Below are positions 14,712 to 43,410 of a stretch of 43,479 bases of DNA, one piece after another. The position numbers and the translations under genes are program-made. The notes under the pieces are model-generated. The model searched no databases. It saw only the letters and a program-made list of their open reading frames with translations, and was not told where the DNA came from. The stretch is from an uncultured Gammaproteobacteria bacterium (GTDB lineage Bacteria > Pseudomonadota > Gammaproteobacteria > PS1 > Pseudothioglobaceae), in the NCBI GenBank assembly GCA_913057955.1, contig CAJXOB010000007.1, positions 1-43,479 on the forward strand. The letters are read 5' to 3'. How positions within the stretch are numbered: position 1 is the first letter of the stretch; every line of letters begins with the position of its first letter.

Positions 14712-14864
14712 AGTACAATTATCTCTTTTCGAAAGAAAAAATAAAGGAAGTTACTAAGTTTAAAATAAGTCTCTAAATTATTGATTTTAATGGCTATTTT
14801 TAGGTGAGTTATCCTATCAATAAAGCCCCATTAAAGTTTATTTGAGAAATATTCGTAATATAGC

Positions 14865-14892
14865 TTGACGATACTGTTTGAGCATGTATAAT
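14865..14892 (+). promoter_or_regulatory. rRNA operon promoter
   Basis: TTGACG (14865-14870), a 16-base spacer and a perfect TATAAT (14887-14892) form a strong sigma70 promoter about 185 bases before 16S. The bases after the -10 box (TTCCCGC) give a G+C-rich discriminator, as expected for a stringently controlled rRNA P1-type promoter. The A+T-rich sequence just upstream could act as an UP element. Confidence 0.85.
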
Positions 14893-14933
14893 TTCCCGCT
14901 TTCACCGACCAAAAAGAACTTTTTTAGTTGGTA

Positions 14934-14949
14934 GCTCTTTAAAAATTTA
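14934..14949 (+). promoter_or_regulatory. boxA antitermination site in the 16S leader
   Basis: GCTCTTTAAAAATTTA closely matches the rRNA boxA element recognised by NusB/NusE in antitermination complexes. It stands between the promoter and the 16S processing stalk, the usual location. A second copy lies before 23S. Confidence 0.75.
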
Positions 14950-14974
14950 TCAAGCAACTTGTGTGGGCACTCGT
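14948..14974 (+). other. 5' arm of the 16S RNase III processing stalk
   Basis: These 27 bases pair with 16627-16653, downstream of 16S, along the full length with only G-U wobble deviations. The stalk brings the two ends of pre-16S together for RNase III cleavage. Complementarity is read directly from the sequence; the role is known for bacterial rRNA operons. Confidence 0.85.
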
Positions 14975-15077
14975 GCAAGAAATTGTGCAGTGCACATAAA
15001 AAACAAAAGCAGATAAGCTTTTTAAAAAATTGAACTATTGGTTATAAAATGCCAAGTGTTCTAAAAAGTCAAAGATT

Positions 15078-16618
<1,541 letters not shown>

Positions 16619-16626
16619 AGAAATGT

Positions 16627-16653
16627 ACGAGTGTTCACACAAGTTGTTTGATA
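16627..16653 (+). other. 3' arm of the 16S RNase III processing stalk
   Basis: This arm is complementary to 14948-14974. It starts nine bases after the 16S 3' end and completes the 27-base-pair processing stalk. The three sites that are not Watson-Crick pairs are G-U pairs, so pairing is preserved. Confidence 0.85.
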
Positions 16654-16708
16654 ATATTAAAGAAAGAGAAAAAGACCAATAACCCAAATTCAATTTAATT
16701 GATATTAA

Positions 16709-16785
<77 letters not shown>

Positions 16786-16811
16786 TTTTTCTGGGTTATT
16801 AGTTTTCTATT

Positions 16812-16887
16812 GGGGCTATAGCTCAGCTGGGAGAGCGCCTGGTTTGCATCCAGGAGGTCAGCAGTTCGATCCTGCTTAGCTCCACCA
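16812..16887 (+). tRNA. alaT: tRNA-Ala (TGC)
   Basis: This 76-base cloverleaf has acceptor arms GGGGCTA and TAGCTCC, a GTTCGATCC T-arm, anticodon TGC at 16845-16847, and an encoded CCA. It follows tRNA-Ile by 26 bases, the standard spacer arrangement. Confidence 0.97.
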
Positions 16888-16900
16888 TTTTTCTCGAATG

Positions 16901-16942
16901 AAAACTTAAATAAGATTTATATATAAGTCTTATTTAAGTTTT
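16901..16942 (+). repeat. 42-base near-perfect palindrome in the rRNA spacer
   Basis: The arms 16901-16915 and 16928-16942 are perfect 15-base complements (AAAACTTAAATAAGA and its reverse complement). The centre is a T-G wobble pair around the self-complementary TTATATATAA. As RNA this would form a long A-U hairpin after tRNA-Ala. It lacks the G+C stem of an intrinsic terminator and sits before boxA. Confidence 0.85.
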
Positions 16943-16974
16943 TATACCAAGCCTTGGTTTAACCCTTGGTTCGG

Positions 16975-16986
16975 AGCTCTTTAACA
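16975..16986 (+). promoter_or_regulatory. boxA antitermination site before 23S
   Basis: AGCTCTTTAACA matches the boxA core (GCTCTTTAACA) and lies about 205 bases before 23S, the expected place for the second antitermination element of an rRNA operon. Confidence 0.75.
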
Positions 16987-17191
16987 ATTTGGATATGAAG
17001 TAAAGTTTGTTAAATACAATACAACGTAAAAAGGTGTATTGCATTGACACAACAATTTCAAAAAATATGGATTCTCATTGATAGATTTATCTATCATTGA
17101 AAAAATAGAATTCACCGATTGTATCGTAAGATACAGTTAGTGACTTCTCGGTGTAAAAAGAATCATTAACCCAGATACTTTGGGGTTATAT

Positions 17192-20081
<2,890 letters not shown>

Positions 20082-20228
20082 ATAACACCCAAGATATTTG
20101 GAGATGTTGTTGTGTCAACAGGCAATATGCCTTATAAACTTTACTTTATCCATTTTGTTATACCTTTTTGGTATAAAAACTTTTTAATTCACTTGAAATA
20201 AGTTTCGACTTAATTCAAGTAAACAGTT
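20082..20228 (+). other. 23S-5S spacer with processing stems
   Basis: No gene. Bases about 20106-20151 complement the 23S upstream flank (16991-17054): TTGTTGTGTCAA pairs with the TTGACACAACAA side and AAACTTTACTT with AAGTAAAGTTT, forming the 23S RNase III stalk. A second stem at 20191-20220 has 13-base arms with one mismatch around a TTCG tetraloop, just ahead of 5S. Confidence 0.75.
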
Positions 20229-20347
20229 TGCTTAGTGACAATAGCAAGTGTGACCCACCTGATCCCATCCCGAACTCAGAAGTGAAACCACTTAGCGCCG
20301 ATGGTAGTGTGGGGTCTCCCCATGTGAGAGTAGGACATTGCTAGGCT
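20229..20347 (+). rRNA. rrf: 5S ribosomal RNA
   Basis: This is a 5S rRNA of about 119 bases. It contains the conserved CCGAACTCAGAAGTGAAAC and GATGGTAGTGTGGGGTCTCC blocks. Helix I pairs GCTTAGTG at the 5' end with the TTGCTAGGC side at the 3' end, which sets the boundaries within a base or two. It is the last gene of the operon. Confidence 0.95.
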
Positions 20348-20356
20348 TTTATTCTA

Positions 20357-20392
20357 AATACCCCGACCTTTTTTAAGGCGGGGTATTTTTTT
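20357..20392 (+). terminator. Intrinsic terminator of the rRNA operon
   Basis: An AATACCCCG-A-CCTT arm pairs with AAGGCGGGGTATT around a T loop, with a single bulged A, and is followed by seven T residues. It lies ten bases after 5S. This is the clearest Rho-independent terminator in the window. Confidence 0.92.
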
Positions 20393-20454
20393 ATCTGATG
20401 CTTAGTCACGTAAAATATAACTATCATTATCACTAGAACTAATGCTTAAGGCCT

Positions 20455-39577: not shown

Positions 39578-40219
39578 ATGGAACAGTATCAAAAGGATTT
39601 TGTAGATTTTACGTTAGAGACTGGCGTTCTTAAGTTTGGTGAATTTACGCTTAAGTCTGGCCGGATTAGTCCATATTTTTTTAATGCAGGGCTATTTAAT
39701 AAGGGCAGTCATTTATCGCAGTTAGGTAAGTTCTACGCTCAAGCTATTGAGGCAAGTGGTTTAGAGTTCGATGTATTGTTTGGCCCAGCATACAAGGGGA
39801 TACCATTGGCTACTGCAACAGCTATTGCCCTTAATGATAGTCAGGGTAGGAATGCTCCTTATAGCTTTAATCGCAAAGAAGTGAAAGATCACGGTGAGGG
39901 TGGTAGCATCGTTGGACATCCTCTAGAGGGCGACATTCTGATTATTGATGATGTTATAACTGCTGGAACTGCAATCCGAGAAGCACAAGATATCATTACT
40001 GCTAACGGTGCTAACACAAAAGGCGTTATTGTTGCACTAGACCGACAAGAGAAAGGAAATGGTCAATTATCTGCGATTCAGGAAGTCGAAGAAATATTTG
40101 GAATTTCGGTTGTAAGTATTATTAACTTGTCAAATATTGTTGACTATTTAAAAGCCTCAAAAAATGAAGATGTTATTCGCAGAATAGAGAGCTATAGATC
40201 TCAATATGGAATTAACTAA
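39578..40219 (+). CDS. pyrE: Orotate phosphoribosyltransferase
   Basis: PyrE makes orotidine 5'-phosphate from orotate and PRPP in pyrimidine synthesis. The 213-residue length is normal. It has [16 protein letters not shown] near residue 22-37, [11 protein letters not shown] near 68, [13 protein letters not shown] for the flexible catalytic loop near 98-110, and the PRPP motif [11 protein letters not shown] near 123. An AGGA site lies about 10 bases before the ATG. It converges on the NfeD-like gene. Confidence 0.97.
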
Positions 40220-40240: not shown

Positions 40241-40678
40241 TTACTTAATTGGTTTGACAATAAAGGTTGAAGACTCAACATCGAGAATTTTAACCATTTG
40301 TCCAATACTAAGGTCTGAACCCTTGGCAAACCATAGGGACTCACCTATTTGAATTTTCCCAATGCCATTTTCAACTGATGCCACCTTGTATTCTTTACCA
40401 ATATGAAGCTTGGCTTTGTCATGTAGTTGATCATCAACAGTTTTAACTGGAAAGTATTTCTTAGCTAAAAAAGTAGTCAATATTGAGAGTAAAACAAAAG
40501 TCAGTATTTGTAATGCAATAGAGACGTCAGGAAAAAGGTAATAAATCACACTTACTGTGATCGCAGATGCCCCAATCCAGAGTAAAAAAACAGACCACAC
40601 AAAGAGTTCAATTATCACAAGTGCGAGACCGAGTACTAGCCAATGCATATAGTTTAAATTTTCAAATAATAATTCCAT
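40241..40678 (-). CDS. NfeD-like membrane protein
   Basis: This 145-residue protein has two or three N-terminal membrane helices (WLVLGLALVIIELFVWSVFLLWIGASA and FVLLSILTTFLAKKYF) and a C-terminal beta-barrel OB domain of the NfeD type (GIGKIQIGESLWFAKG...GQMVKILDVESSTFIVKPI). Short NfeD proteins usually pair with an SPFH/stomatin-like membrane protein such as QmcA; no such gene is adjacent here, so the partner must be elsewhere or missing. Its start codon is separated by about 98 bases from the divergent dioxygenase gene. Confidence 0.88.
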   Translation of the reverse strand: MELLFENLNYMHWLVLGLALVIIELFVWSVFLLWIGASAITVSVIYYLFPDVSIALQILTFVLLSILTTFLAKKYFPVKTVDDQLHDKAKLHIGKEYKVASVENGIGKIQIGESLWFAKGSDLSIGQMVKILDVESSTFIVKPIK

Positions 40679-40776: not shown

Positions 40777-41667
40777 ATGCAAGAAAATATTTCAAATATA
40801 AGCCAGGAGTTGGCTGATCAATTTCATCGCGATGGTTATATCTTTCTTGAGGAGGCTCTAACAGAGTCTCAATTATTAGCAATTAATAGTCAATTATTAA
40901 CTTGGGTTGAAGAGAGTAAGCTTCATTCAGAGTCTTTTGGTAAGATTAAAGATGGAAGACCTCGCTTTGATGTTGACTTAAAAAGCCATAGCGAAAATAA
41001 CCCAGCCTTAAGGAGAATTACTTCACCGGCAGAAATATCAGATGCCTGCCTTGATGTTGTTAAAGATAATAGGGCGCTAGATTTTGTTGCTGAAATTTTT
41101 GGTCCTAATATTAAGCACTGGACAAATAAACTGAACCTTAAGCTACCTAGCTCAGGCACTGAAGTTAAATTTCATCAAGATTTTCCATTTGAGCCGCACT
41201 CAAATGAAGATATTATGACAGTTCTTTTTTTTCTGGATGACGTAACGCTTGAAAATGGGCCTCTTGAGGTTGTTCCAGGAACCCATAATGGGCCTCTTTA
41301 TTCTTTATGGCATGATGGAGTGTTTACAGGAGCCGTAAGCTCTGAAGTTGAACTAGAAAAAAAAGAGGGAGCTATAAGTTGTACTGGGAGAGCTGGCTCA
41401 GCATGCTTGATGCATTCTAAATTATTGCATGGCTCTAGCTCAAATCGAACTAAGCTGCCTCGATCTCTATTTATTGTAAGTTACTCAGCTGAAGATGCTA
41501 TTCCTTTAACAGAAAACCCATTGCCGAGTGATTTAGACGGGATGATAGTTAGGGGTAAGAAAACAGATACTGTGAGGTGCTCAAGCTATAGTGTTGAATT
41601 GCCTGAGTACCCTAAAGAGGTTTCTTTTTTTGGTCAGCAGGATAAATCTAGTAATCTTTTGATGTAA
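40777..41667 (+). CDS. PhyH-family 2-oxoglutarate/Fe(II) dioxygenase, possible phosphonate hydroxylase
   Basis: This 296-residue protein is a phytanoyl-CoA-dioxygenase-family oxygenase. The start is ATG 40777, preceded by AGGAG at 40765-40769. The N-terminus has the family FHRDGYIFLEEAL opening; the iron site is His133-x-Asp135 (FHQDFPF) and distal His218 (LLHGSSSN), with Arg229 placed to bind 2-oxoglutarate. PhnY and PhnY*, which hydroxylate C1 of 2-aminoethyl- or methylphosphonate ahead of PhnZ, belong to this same family, and the gene lies 29 bases upstream of a TmpA-like gene and a PhnZ/TmpB-like gene. That makes a phosphonate substrate likely but not shown; other small molecules are possible. 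No Pho box is visible upstream. Confidence 0.85.
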   Translation: MQENISNISQELADQFHRDGYIFLEEALTESQLLAINSQLLTWVEESKLHSESFGKIKDGRPRFDVDLKSHSENNPALRRITSPAEISDACLDVVKDNRALDFVAEIFGPNIKHWTNKLNLKLPSSGTEVKFHQDFPFEPHSNEDIMTVLFFLDDVTLENGPLEVVPGTHNGPLYSLWHDGVFTGAVSSEVELEKKEGAISCTGRAGSACLMHSKLLHGSSSNRTKLPRSLFIVSYSAEDAIPLTENPLPSDLDGMIVRGKKTDTVRCSSYSVELPEYPKEVSFFGQQDKSSNLLM

Positions 41668-41696
41668 CAATATCAATTCCTTGATTGGATGCATAA

Positions 41697-42863
41697 ATGC
41701 CAATGAGAACTAATAAGCCAAATTACTTTATTGAAAAGCTTTTCATTGATAATGATGATTTAGTGATTGATTGGAATGATGGAAAGCGAAGTCGCCTTTA
41801 TAGTCACTGGCTTCGAGATCATTGCCAACTGACAACATCTCGCAATCCTAATAATGGCCAGCGCTTATTTAGTATTAGTAGCGTACTCAAAAATACCTAC
41901 ATTGAGAAAGCAAATATAGATGAAAAGAGTGATGTCTGTGTGCGATTTCAACCCGAAGATTATGTATCTATTTTTTCACAGGACTGGTTAAGAAAAAACT
42001 GTTATAACCTTAACAATCCCTTCGATGACAGGAGTGAAAAAAATAAAAAATTGTGGAAAAAAAGTAGCTTTAATAATGACCTGCCCAGAGTCAAGTATAA
42101 AAATTTCCATCAAAATGATACTGGTAAGTTAGATTCTTTGCGCTTCGTTAGAGACTTGGGTTTTTGTATTATCGAGGGCGCTCCAATCACAGAAGGGCAA
42201 GTGTTGTCTGTAATTGCTGAGCTAGGGTTTACTAGAGAGACGAATTATGGCCAATTATTTGAAGTCCGCACTGAAGTAAATCCAAATAATCTCGCCTTTA
42301 CAAATATGGGGCTTGGCTCCCATACTGACAATCCATATCGTGAACCTGTTCCAACAGTGCAGCTCCTGCATTGCCTAGAGAGCTCAATTGAGGGTGGTGA
42401 TTCGATTTTAGTGGATGGATTTAATGCTGCAAAAATACTAAAAGAAGAAAGCAGTGAAAATTTTGAAGTGTTAACAAACAACTGGATTAATTTTCGATTT
42501 TCTGATGGGAAGGCTGATCTTAGGTCAAGAGTTCCGATGATTGAAATTAATGATAATAATGAAATTATTAAGGTGAGATATAACAACCGATCAATTGACA
42601 CAATTAAACTTCCTCCAGAAAAAATTCAACCCTTTTATTTGGCTTATCGGCACTGGAGTGAGGTAATTGAGCGAGATGAGTTGAAGATTGAATTTCAGCT
42701 TTTACCTGGTGAAATATTAATGTTTGATAACACTAGAGTAATGCATGCGAGGACCGCTTTTTCTAAAAATGGTAAGCGCCACTTGCAGGGGGCTTATACC
42801 GATCTTGATGGGCTTTATAGTTTACTAAACATCTTAGAAAACCAAGAAAATGATCAAGATTAA
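41697..42863 (+). CDS. tmpA: Gamma-butyrobetaine hydroxylase/TmpA-like 2-oxoglutarate dioxygenase
   Basis: This 388-residue protein has the two-domain plan of gamma-butyrobetaine hydroxylases: an N-terminal DUF971-like domain (SHWLRDHC near residues 36-43) and a TauD-type double-stranded beta-helix. The iron ligands are His209-x-Asp211 (SHTDNPYREPVPT) and His350 (VMHARTAF), with Arg361 for 2-oxoglutarate. TmpA of this family hydroxylates 2-trimethylaminoethylphosphonate; BBOX enzymes make carnitine. Overlap with a TmpB/PhnZ-like gene strongly favours a phosphonate role, so the symbol rests on context. Of the zinc cysteines of human BBOX, only the first appears kept; the next two positions look like Leu45 and Ser48. 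Its 3' end overlaps the HD gene by 14 bases. Confidence 0.82.
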   Translation: MPMRTNKPNYFIEKLFIDNDDLVIDWNDGKRSRLYSHWLRDHCQLTTSRNPNNGQRLFSISSVLKNTYIEKANIDEKSDVCVRFQPEDYVSIFSQDWLRKNCYNLNNPFDDRSEKNKKLWKKSSFNNDLPRVKYKNFHQNDTGKLDSLRFVRDLGFCIIEGAPITEGQVLSVIAELGFTRETNYGQLFEVRTEVNPNNLAFTNMGLGSHTDNPYREPVPTVQLLHCLESSIEGGDSILVDGFNAAKILKEESSENFEVLTNNWINFRFSDGKADLRSRVPMIEINDNNEIIKVRYNNRSIDTIKLPPEKIQPFYLAYRHWSEVIERDELKIEFQLLPGEILMFDNTRVMHARTAFSKNGKRHLQGAYTDLDGLYSLLNILENQENDQD

Positions 42864-43410
42864 TCATTTTAATATTGTAAATCATATTGAGGATATCTTT
42901 AATAGGCGCGGCGCTGAATCCTATTTGGGTGAAGACGTCACAATGGCTCAACATATGCTCCAAGCTGCCCAATGCGCAGAAGAATCTGGCGCGGATGGAA
43001 GTCTAATTGTCGCCGCATTGCTTCATGACATAGGTCATTATAAGAATGAAATTCCTGAAACGGCATTAGCAAAAGGGATAAATAATTATCATGAGGAGGC
43101 GGGTGCTAATTTTTTAGAAGATTACTTTCCAGTATCTGTTATTGAGCCTATAAGGCAACATGTCTCTGCAAAGCGTTATTTGTGTGCAGTCAAGTCTAAT
43201 TATTTTCAAAGTCTTTCAGTCGCTTCAGTCCACACCCTTAATCTTCAAGGTGGTCCAATGAATGAAAATGAGATTAAAGAGTTTGAGAAAAATGCTTATT
43301 TAGATGAATGCATAAAGCTGCGATACTGGGATGAGGACGCTAAAGATCCAGAAAGAGCTCATCATCCATTTTCATACTTCCGAGCTTTGGTTGAGTCACT
43401 AGTCAAATAA
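42850..43410 (+). CDS. tmpB: HD-domain di-iron oxygenase, PhnZ/TmpB-like (C-P bond cleavage)
   Basis: This 186-residue HD-domain protein matches PhnZ/TmpB in length and in every active-site residue I recall: metal ligands His35, His59-Asp60, His81, His104 and Asp161; the gating pair Tyr25/Glu28; and phosphonate-side residues His63, Lys108, Ser126, Gln133 and Arg158. PhnZ uses a mixed-valent Fe(II)/Fe(III) centre and O2 to split the C-P bond of 1-hydroxy-2-aminoethylphosphonate; TmpB does so on the trimethylated analogue, giving glycine betaine and phosphate. The ATG lies inside the end of the upstream oxygenase gene, so translation is coupled. A plain HD phosphohydrolase would not need the Tyr/Glu pair. 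The symbol depends on the true substrate. Confidence 0.85.
   Translation: MIKINHFNIVNHIEDIFNRRGAESYLGEDVTMAQHMLQAAQCAEESGADGSLIVAALLHDIGHYKNEIPETALAKGINNYHEEAGANFLEDYFPVSVIEPIRQHVSAKRYLCAVKSNYFQSLSVASVHTLNLQGGPMNENEIKEFEKNAYLDECIKLRYWDEDAKDPERAHHPFSYFRALVESLVK

What the first reader, a model, noticed from the sequence alone, without database searches (positions are those of the whole stretch)
40777..43410. Oxidative phosphonate-degradation cassette in a low-GC gammaproteobacterium
Three co-directional, tightly packed genes encode a PhyH-type 2OG dioxygenase, a TmpA-like 2OG dioxygenase and a PhnZ/TmpB-like HD oxygenase. Known PhnY-PhnZ and TmpA-TmpB pairs hydroxylate C1 of a phosphonate and then split the C-P bond to release phosphate. 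The genes follow housekeeping genes directly, so they may be an accessory insert at a conserved chromosomal site. It would let the cell use dissolved organophosphonates without C-P lyase.
Basis: partly seen in the sequence, partly recalled or inferred. Interest (0 to 1): 0.78.

Follow-up and report, generated by a model that had tools for sequence, protein, structure and literature searches.

The report
TmpA-TmpB phosphonate-splitting gene pair

Summary
The three genes are present exactly as described. TmpA (41697-42863) and TmpB (42850-43410) overlap by 14 bp. They are close relatives of the characterised Leisingera TmpA and TmpB (44% and 50% identity), keep every catalytic and phosphonate-contact residue I could test, and fall inside the TmpA and TmpB clades, away from GBBH, PhnZ and PhnX-linked HD proteins. 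The best reading is the known TmpAB route: 2-trimethylaminoethylphosphonate to its (R)-1-hydroxy form, then glycine betaine plus phosphate. No C-P lyase (PhnJ) was found in this genome or its relatives. The host is a SUP05/Pseudothioglobus genome.

PhyH is not PhnY-like: 33 bits on the PhnY* model, against 261 for a PhyH truly paired with an HD oxygenase. It comes unlinked from TmpAB inside the genus, and its 45-48% relatives sit in amino-acid-uptake operons. The pair is also no accessory insert: 23 of 26 genus genomes that hold this region have TmpB.

Side observations: TmpA and TmpB became fused into one protein at least twice in bacteria; a 432-aa protein of unknown family follows TmpB at two unrelated sites. 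Activity is inferred, not measured.

The parts
41697..42863 (+). TmpA: Fe(II)/2OG-dependent 2-trimethylaminoethylphosphonate C1-hydroxylase
   Evidence: 44% identity to Leisingera TmpA 6npb; NF049936 420.8 bits over the cut-off of 400; iron triad H209/D211/H350, phosphonate contacts N198/N297/R298; TmpA clade 97*
42850..43410 (+). TmpB: mixed-valent diiron HD oxygenase that splits the C-P bond
   Evidence: 50% identity to Leisingera TmpB 6npa; H35, H59, D60, H81, H104, D161 and the Y25-x-x-E28 lid all kept; TmpB clade 96* that excludes PhnZ
42850..42863 (+). 14-bp overlap of tmpA and tmpB (likely translational coupling)
   Evidence: ORF coordinates; short overlaps of 4-8 bp in ten related loci
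40777..41667 (+). PhyH-type 2OG dioxygenase, same strand, 29 bp upstream; role unknown, probably not C-P chemistry
   Evidence: PF05721 1e-25; HxD...H kept (H133, D135, H218); not PhnY or EctD by NCBIfam; unlinked from TmpAB in G001 and G019
40241..40678 (-). nfeD, upstream border of the site
   Evidence: same neighbour in most genus loci
39578..40219 (+). pyrE, conserved chromosomal anchor

Best explanation
TmpA and TmpB form the known two-step oxidative route. TmpA uses Fe(II), O2 and 2-oxoglutarate to hydroxylate C1 of 2-trimethylaminoethylphosphonate to the (R)-1-hydroxy product. TmpB, a diiron HD oxygenase, then cleaves the C-P bond to give glycine betaine and phosphate. Shown here: family, clade, catalytic and contact residues, conserved order and overlap, fusion of the two in other lineages, absence of PhnJ. 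Inferred: the reaction, the substrate, uptake by one of four OpuAC-type betaine/choline transporters, and use of the betaine. The upstream PhyH enzyme is most likely a separate small-molecule (amino-acid-like) hydroxylase that shares the site.
For: PDB relatives 6npb and 6npa. All metal ligands and the YxxE lid are conserved (residues from PMC8177086). TmpA's phosphonate contacts N187, N287 and R288 (PMC9296572) are window N198, N297 and R298. In 48 distinct TmpA sequences that are adjacent or fused to TmpB, R298 and the surrounding signature are kept, while human GBBH and 24 solo homologues lack the full set. The TmpA clade (42 rows, 97*) and TmpB clade (46 rows, 96*) include the Leisingera enzymes and exclude GBBH/TMLD-like proteins, PhnZ, and PhnX- or PhnY-linked HD proteins. 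Fusion arose twice. Another TmpAB locus lies among quaternary-amine genes: BCCT, MttB and a DMGDH-like gene in L041. PhnJ is absent and four OpuAC binding proteins are present in the own genome.
Against: TmpA scores higher on the GBBH model TIGR02409 (461) than on the TmpA model (421), and both cut-offs are passed. TmpB scores 251.5, under NF049941's cut-off of 300. No Pho-box-like site precedes the genes. The glycine-betaine methyltransferase candidate found next door in some relatives is absent from this genome. No activity was measured.
Confidence: 0.85

Rival explanations
1. Three-enzyme cassette: PhyH is a second C1-hydroxylase (PhnY-like) with its own phosphonate substrate, and TmpB splits the hydroxy-products of both.
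For: PhyH lies 29 bp upstream here and upstream of tmpA in most genus members; 22 genus genomes have both PhyH and TmpB; true PhnY enzymes are also PhyH-family (Dietzia pair).
Against: 33.5 bits on the PhnY* model against 260.8 for the HD-paired Dietzia PhyH. Unlinked in G001 and G019, absent in G026, which still has TmpAB. No orthologue near TmpAB in 28 loci outside the family. Relatives at 45-48% identity sit with amino-acid ABC transporters and M20, RidA and aldolase-II genes.
Confidence: 0.13
2. TmpA is a gamma-butyrobetaine hydroxylase (carnitine synthesis) that merely lies next to an HD protein.
For: TIGR02409 scores 461 bits, over its cut-off, above the TmpA model.
Against: R298 and the contact set are those of TmpA; human GBBH has Ala at that position. 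Inside the TmpA clade with Leisingera TmpA. Overlap or fusion with TmpB in related loci.
Confidence: 0.06
3. The pair acts on 2-aminoethyl- or methylphosphonate (PhnY/PhnZ-type function).
For: Same chemistry and same HD superfamily.
Against: The HD protein scores TmpB 251 > Phn-HD 203 > HMP dioxygenase 143, while the PhnY-paired Dietzia HD scores the other way round (Phn-HD 212, HMP 202, TmpB 142). The aromatic residues that could hold a quaternary amine are kept in TmpA (Y184, F188, F201, Y367).
Confidence: 0.06

Closest known systems
TmpA/TmpB of Leisingera caerulea (PDB 6npb, 6npa; Rajakovich 2019)
   Same: Gene order, fold families, iron ligands, YxxE lid, phosphonate-contact residues, clade
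   Different: 44% and 50% identity; marine sulfur oxidiser; a PhyH gene upstream; fused to one protein in some genus members
PhnY/PhnZ (4mlm) and Gimesia PhnY*/PhnZ1
   Same: Two-step 2OG hydroxylase plus HD diiron oxygenase logic
   Different: PhnZ and PhnY-paired HD proteins fall outside the TmpB clade; the hydroxylase here is GBBH/TauD-type, not PhyH-type
PhoF, the fungal PhnY-PhnZ fusion (PMC10574752)
   Same: Hydroxylase and HD oxygenase in one chain, as in the TmpA-TmpB fusions of relatives
   Different: Fungal, acts on 2-AEP and 3-aminopropylphosphonate; the window's own genes are separate
Gamma-butyrobetaine hydroxylase
   Same: Overall fold and trimethylammonium cage
   Different: Ala instead of Arg298 (human enzyme); not linked to an HD oxygenase

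Membership tests
TmpA | 2OG-oxygenase iron triad HxD...H | tested here: met
   H209, D211, H350
TmpA | Phosphonate contacts N187, N287, R288 (PMC9296572), Arg absent in GBBH | tested here: met
   Window N198, N297, R298
TmpA | Clade with Leisingera TmpA, apart from GBBH | tested here: met
   97* clade of 42 rows (quick tree, SH-aLRT only)
TmpA | Curated equivalog score | tested here: met
   420.8 vs 400; but the GBBH model is also passed with 461
TmpA | Hydroxylates C1 of 2-trimethylaminoethylphosphonate | not testable with these tools
   needs enzyme assay
TmpB | Diiron motif H...HD...H...H...D | tested here: met
   H35, H59, D60, H81, H104, D161
TmpB | YxxE substrate lid | tested here: met
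   Y25, E28 (PMC8177086)
TmpB | Clade with Leisingera TmpB, apart from PhnZ | tested here: met
   96* clade of 46 rows
NCBIfam TmpB equivalog NF049941 (annotation label, not a biochemical criterion) | Score over the curated cut-off | tested here: not met
   251.5 vs 300; so filed as a TmpB-clade oxygenase, not as a certified equivalog
TmpB | Releases phosphate from the hydroxyphosphonate | not testable with these tools
   needs enzyme assay
PhnY/PhnY* (for the PhyH gene) | Family score; close to HD-paired PhyH enzymes | tested here: not met
   33.5 bits vs cut-off 500; the HD-paired Dietzia PhyH gives 260.8
Ectoine hydroxylase EctD (for the PhyH gene) | Family score | tested here: not met
   56.6 vs 336.5
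Gamma-butyrobetaine hydroxylase | GBBH pocket without Arg298, GBBH clade | tested here: not met
   Arg298 present, TmpA clade

The most novel reading that the evidence does not exclude
PhyH is a new kind of phosphonate C1-hydroxylase, so one HD oxygenase (TmpB) is fed by two unrelated hydroxylases with different substrates in a globally abundant marine clade.
Probability: 0.1. Interest if true: 0.62.

Novelty: new member of a known kind. Interest (0 to 1): 0.4.

Why it matters
It makes SUP05/Pseudothioglobus, a common ocean clade, a likely consumer of 2-trimethylaminoethylphosphonate. The expected product is glycine betaine plus phosphate, with no C-P lyase and hence no methane route. The marine phosphonate survey that I could read (PMC9381506) does not mention SUP05 or Thioglobus in its main text. 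Some genus members are in culture (PMC12421898), so the claim can be tested by growth. The independent TmpA-TmpB fusions give natural single-chain versions for mechanistic study.

Tried and rejected
PhyH as PhnY or EctD: rejected by family scores. A PhyH tree did not resolve deeper placement. The PhyH AlphaFold model (pLDDT 84) matches proline hydroxylase H11, SnoN, GriE and EctD about equally, so it gives no substrate. Accessory-island idea: rejected by genus-wide distribution and GC. Pho box: none found. Terminator or structured RNA after tmpB: none. Adjacent glycine-betaine catabolism as proof of substrate: weakened, because the homocysteine-methyltransferase-like gene is in only 5 of 19 genus genomes and not in this one, and in G026 it lies near the same chromosomal site without TmpAB. 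The structure of the 432-aa neighbour failed (pLDDT 51), so it was not searched. The original TmpA/TmpB and PhoF papers are not held in the library.

Full report
Observation. The last two overlap by 14 bp. The window is an entire contig of a 1.57-Mb genome and ends 69 bp after the HD gene. The host is a SUP05/Pseudothioglobus relative.

TmpA. The protein matches the solved 2-trimethylaminoethylphosphonate hydroxylase 6npb at E=1.5e-92 and human GBBH at about 1e-53. Family scores alone are ambiguous: both the GBBH and TmpA models are passed, GBBH with the higher score. Residues decide. According to PMC9296572, TmpA binds the phosphonate with N187, N287 and R288, whereas GBBH uses two Asn and no Arg. 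The chain numbering appears to be six higher; the equivalents in the window are N198, N297 and R298. I aligned 48 distinct TmpA sequences that are adjacent or fused to a TmpB. All carry the Tyr, Phe, Asn and Arg298 signature (one has Ser at 297). Human GBBH and 24 solo homologues lack the full set. A tree puts the window protein in a 42-row clade (97*) with Leisingera TmpA and TmpB-linked proteins only (quick search, SH-aLRT support).

TmpB. The HD protein is 50% identical to TmpB 6npa and a weaker match to PhnZ. All six diiron ligands and the Y25/E28 lid are kept (motif from PMC8177086). It scores 251.5 on the TmpB model, below the curated 300, but above its scores on Phn-HD and on HMP dioxygenase. 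As a control, the HD protein of Dietzia that is paired with a PhnY-type enzyme scores in the opposite order. The TmpB clade (46 rows, 96*) excludes PhnZ, the Dietzia protein and the PhnX-linked HD proteins.

PhyH. It keeps HxD...H but is not PhnY: 33.5 bits against 260.8 for the Dietzia PhnY-type control. In most of the genus it is directly upstream of tmpA. In G001 and G019 it lies elsewhere, near an ftsK-like gene, and G026 has TmpAB without it. None of 28 TmpAB loci outside the family has its orthologue nearby; L041 has a different PhyH (29%) downstream. Its nearest relatives outside the genus (45-52%) occur without HD oxygenases in the stretches read, and three of them (45-48%) sit with amino-acid ABC transporters and genes such as M20, RidA, DUF1028 and aldolase-II (M20, RidA and DUF1028 named by eye). 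By fold it resembles proline, leucine and ectoine hydroxylases, among others. I infer an amino-acid-like substrate, at moderate confidence.

Site and distribution. TmpB is in 23 of 29 genus genomes. Among the 26 in which pyrE and nfeD were recovered, 23 have it, and two of the other three end at a contig edge inside PhyH. One other genus of the family has it near pyrE (G032). Three genus members keep pyrE-pirin-nfeD-stomatin without the genes and carry a fused TmpA-TmpB gene elsewhere. GC of the genes (36.5-38.7%) equals that of the window (38.2%). So the trait is core to the genus, at a site that changed at least once.

Fusion. One-ORF TmpA-TmpB proteins of about 570 aa occur in a Pseudothioglobus subclade (three genomes) and in many Streptomyces and relatives. 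On the TmpA tree this takes two changes of state. This links the two functions independently of operon order. Fusion of this kind is known from the fungal PhoF (PhnY-PhnZ; PMC10574752). I found no report of a bacterial TmpA-TmpB fusion in the papers held, but the library lacks the key papers.

Physiology. PhnJ is absent here and in all 29 relatives searched, with E. coli as a working control. No PhnD passes its cut-off in this genome. Four OpuAC-type binding proteins clearly pass theirs and are plausible carriers for a quaternary-amine phosphonate. Downstream of tmpB some relatives have homocysteine-methyltransferase-like and DMGDH-like genes. That suits glycine betaine as a product, but the association is patchy and the first of these is absent here. 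Outside the family, L041 couples TmpAB with BCCT, MttB and a DMGDH-like gene.

Verdict. A well-supported new member of the TmpAB pathway, in an abundant marine clade. The three-gene cassette and accessory-insert readings are not supported.

Noticed in passing
L032 5834-7543, L034 5792-7543, L037 5780-7543; L049, L051-L055 and other Streptomycetaceae loci: TmpA and TmpB fused into one ORF, in two independent lineages.
   Followed up: yes
L025 7593-8891, L065 7593-8891, L032 7566-8864, L034 7571-8872, L037 7561-8859 (also L027, L030): A 432-aa protein of unknown family (only a faint methylcobalamin:CoM methyltransferase match, 19.6 bits) directly follows tmpB or the fusion at two unrelated genomic sites; a candidate extra partner of the pathway.
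   Followed up: partly
L101 2500-3633, L103 1937-3043, L146 2342-3499, L151 2983-4110: A separate TmpA-like subfamily (signature F-F-D-Y...P-R); on a Pseudomonas plasmid it sits beside a divergent HD protein, a choline transporter and choline dehydrogenase, perhaps another hydroxylase/HD pair.
   Followed up: partly
L022 7659-8126 and 8123-8569: A divergent type II dehydroquinase-like gene directly before a normal AroQ, conserved across most genus loci.
   Followed up: no
L036 4963-5751; L023 4864-5838 (homologue by eye at L155 2139-3068): Extra genes between PhyH and TmpA in single genomes: a HalD-like 2OG enzyme (48 bits) and an unknown protein with an apparent signal peptide.
   Followed up: partly
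window 14712-20454: About 5.7 kb without an ORF of 100 aa or more; probably an rRNA operon, not checked.
   Followed up: no
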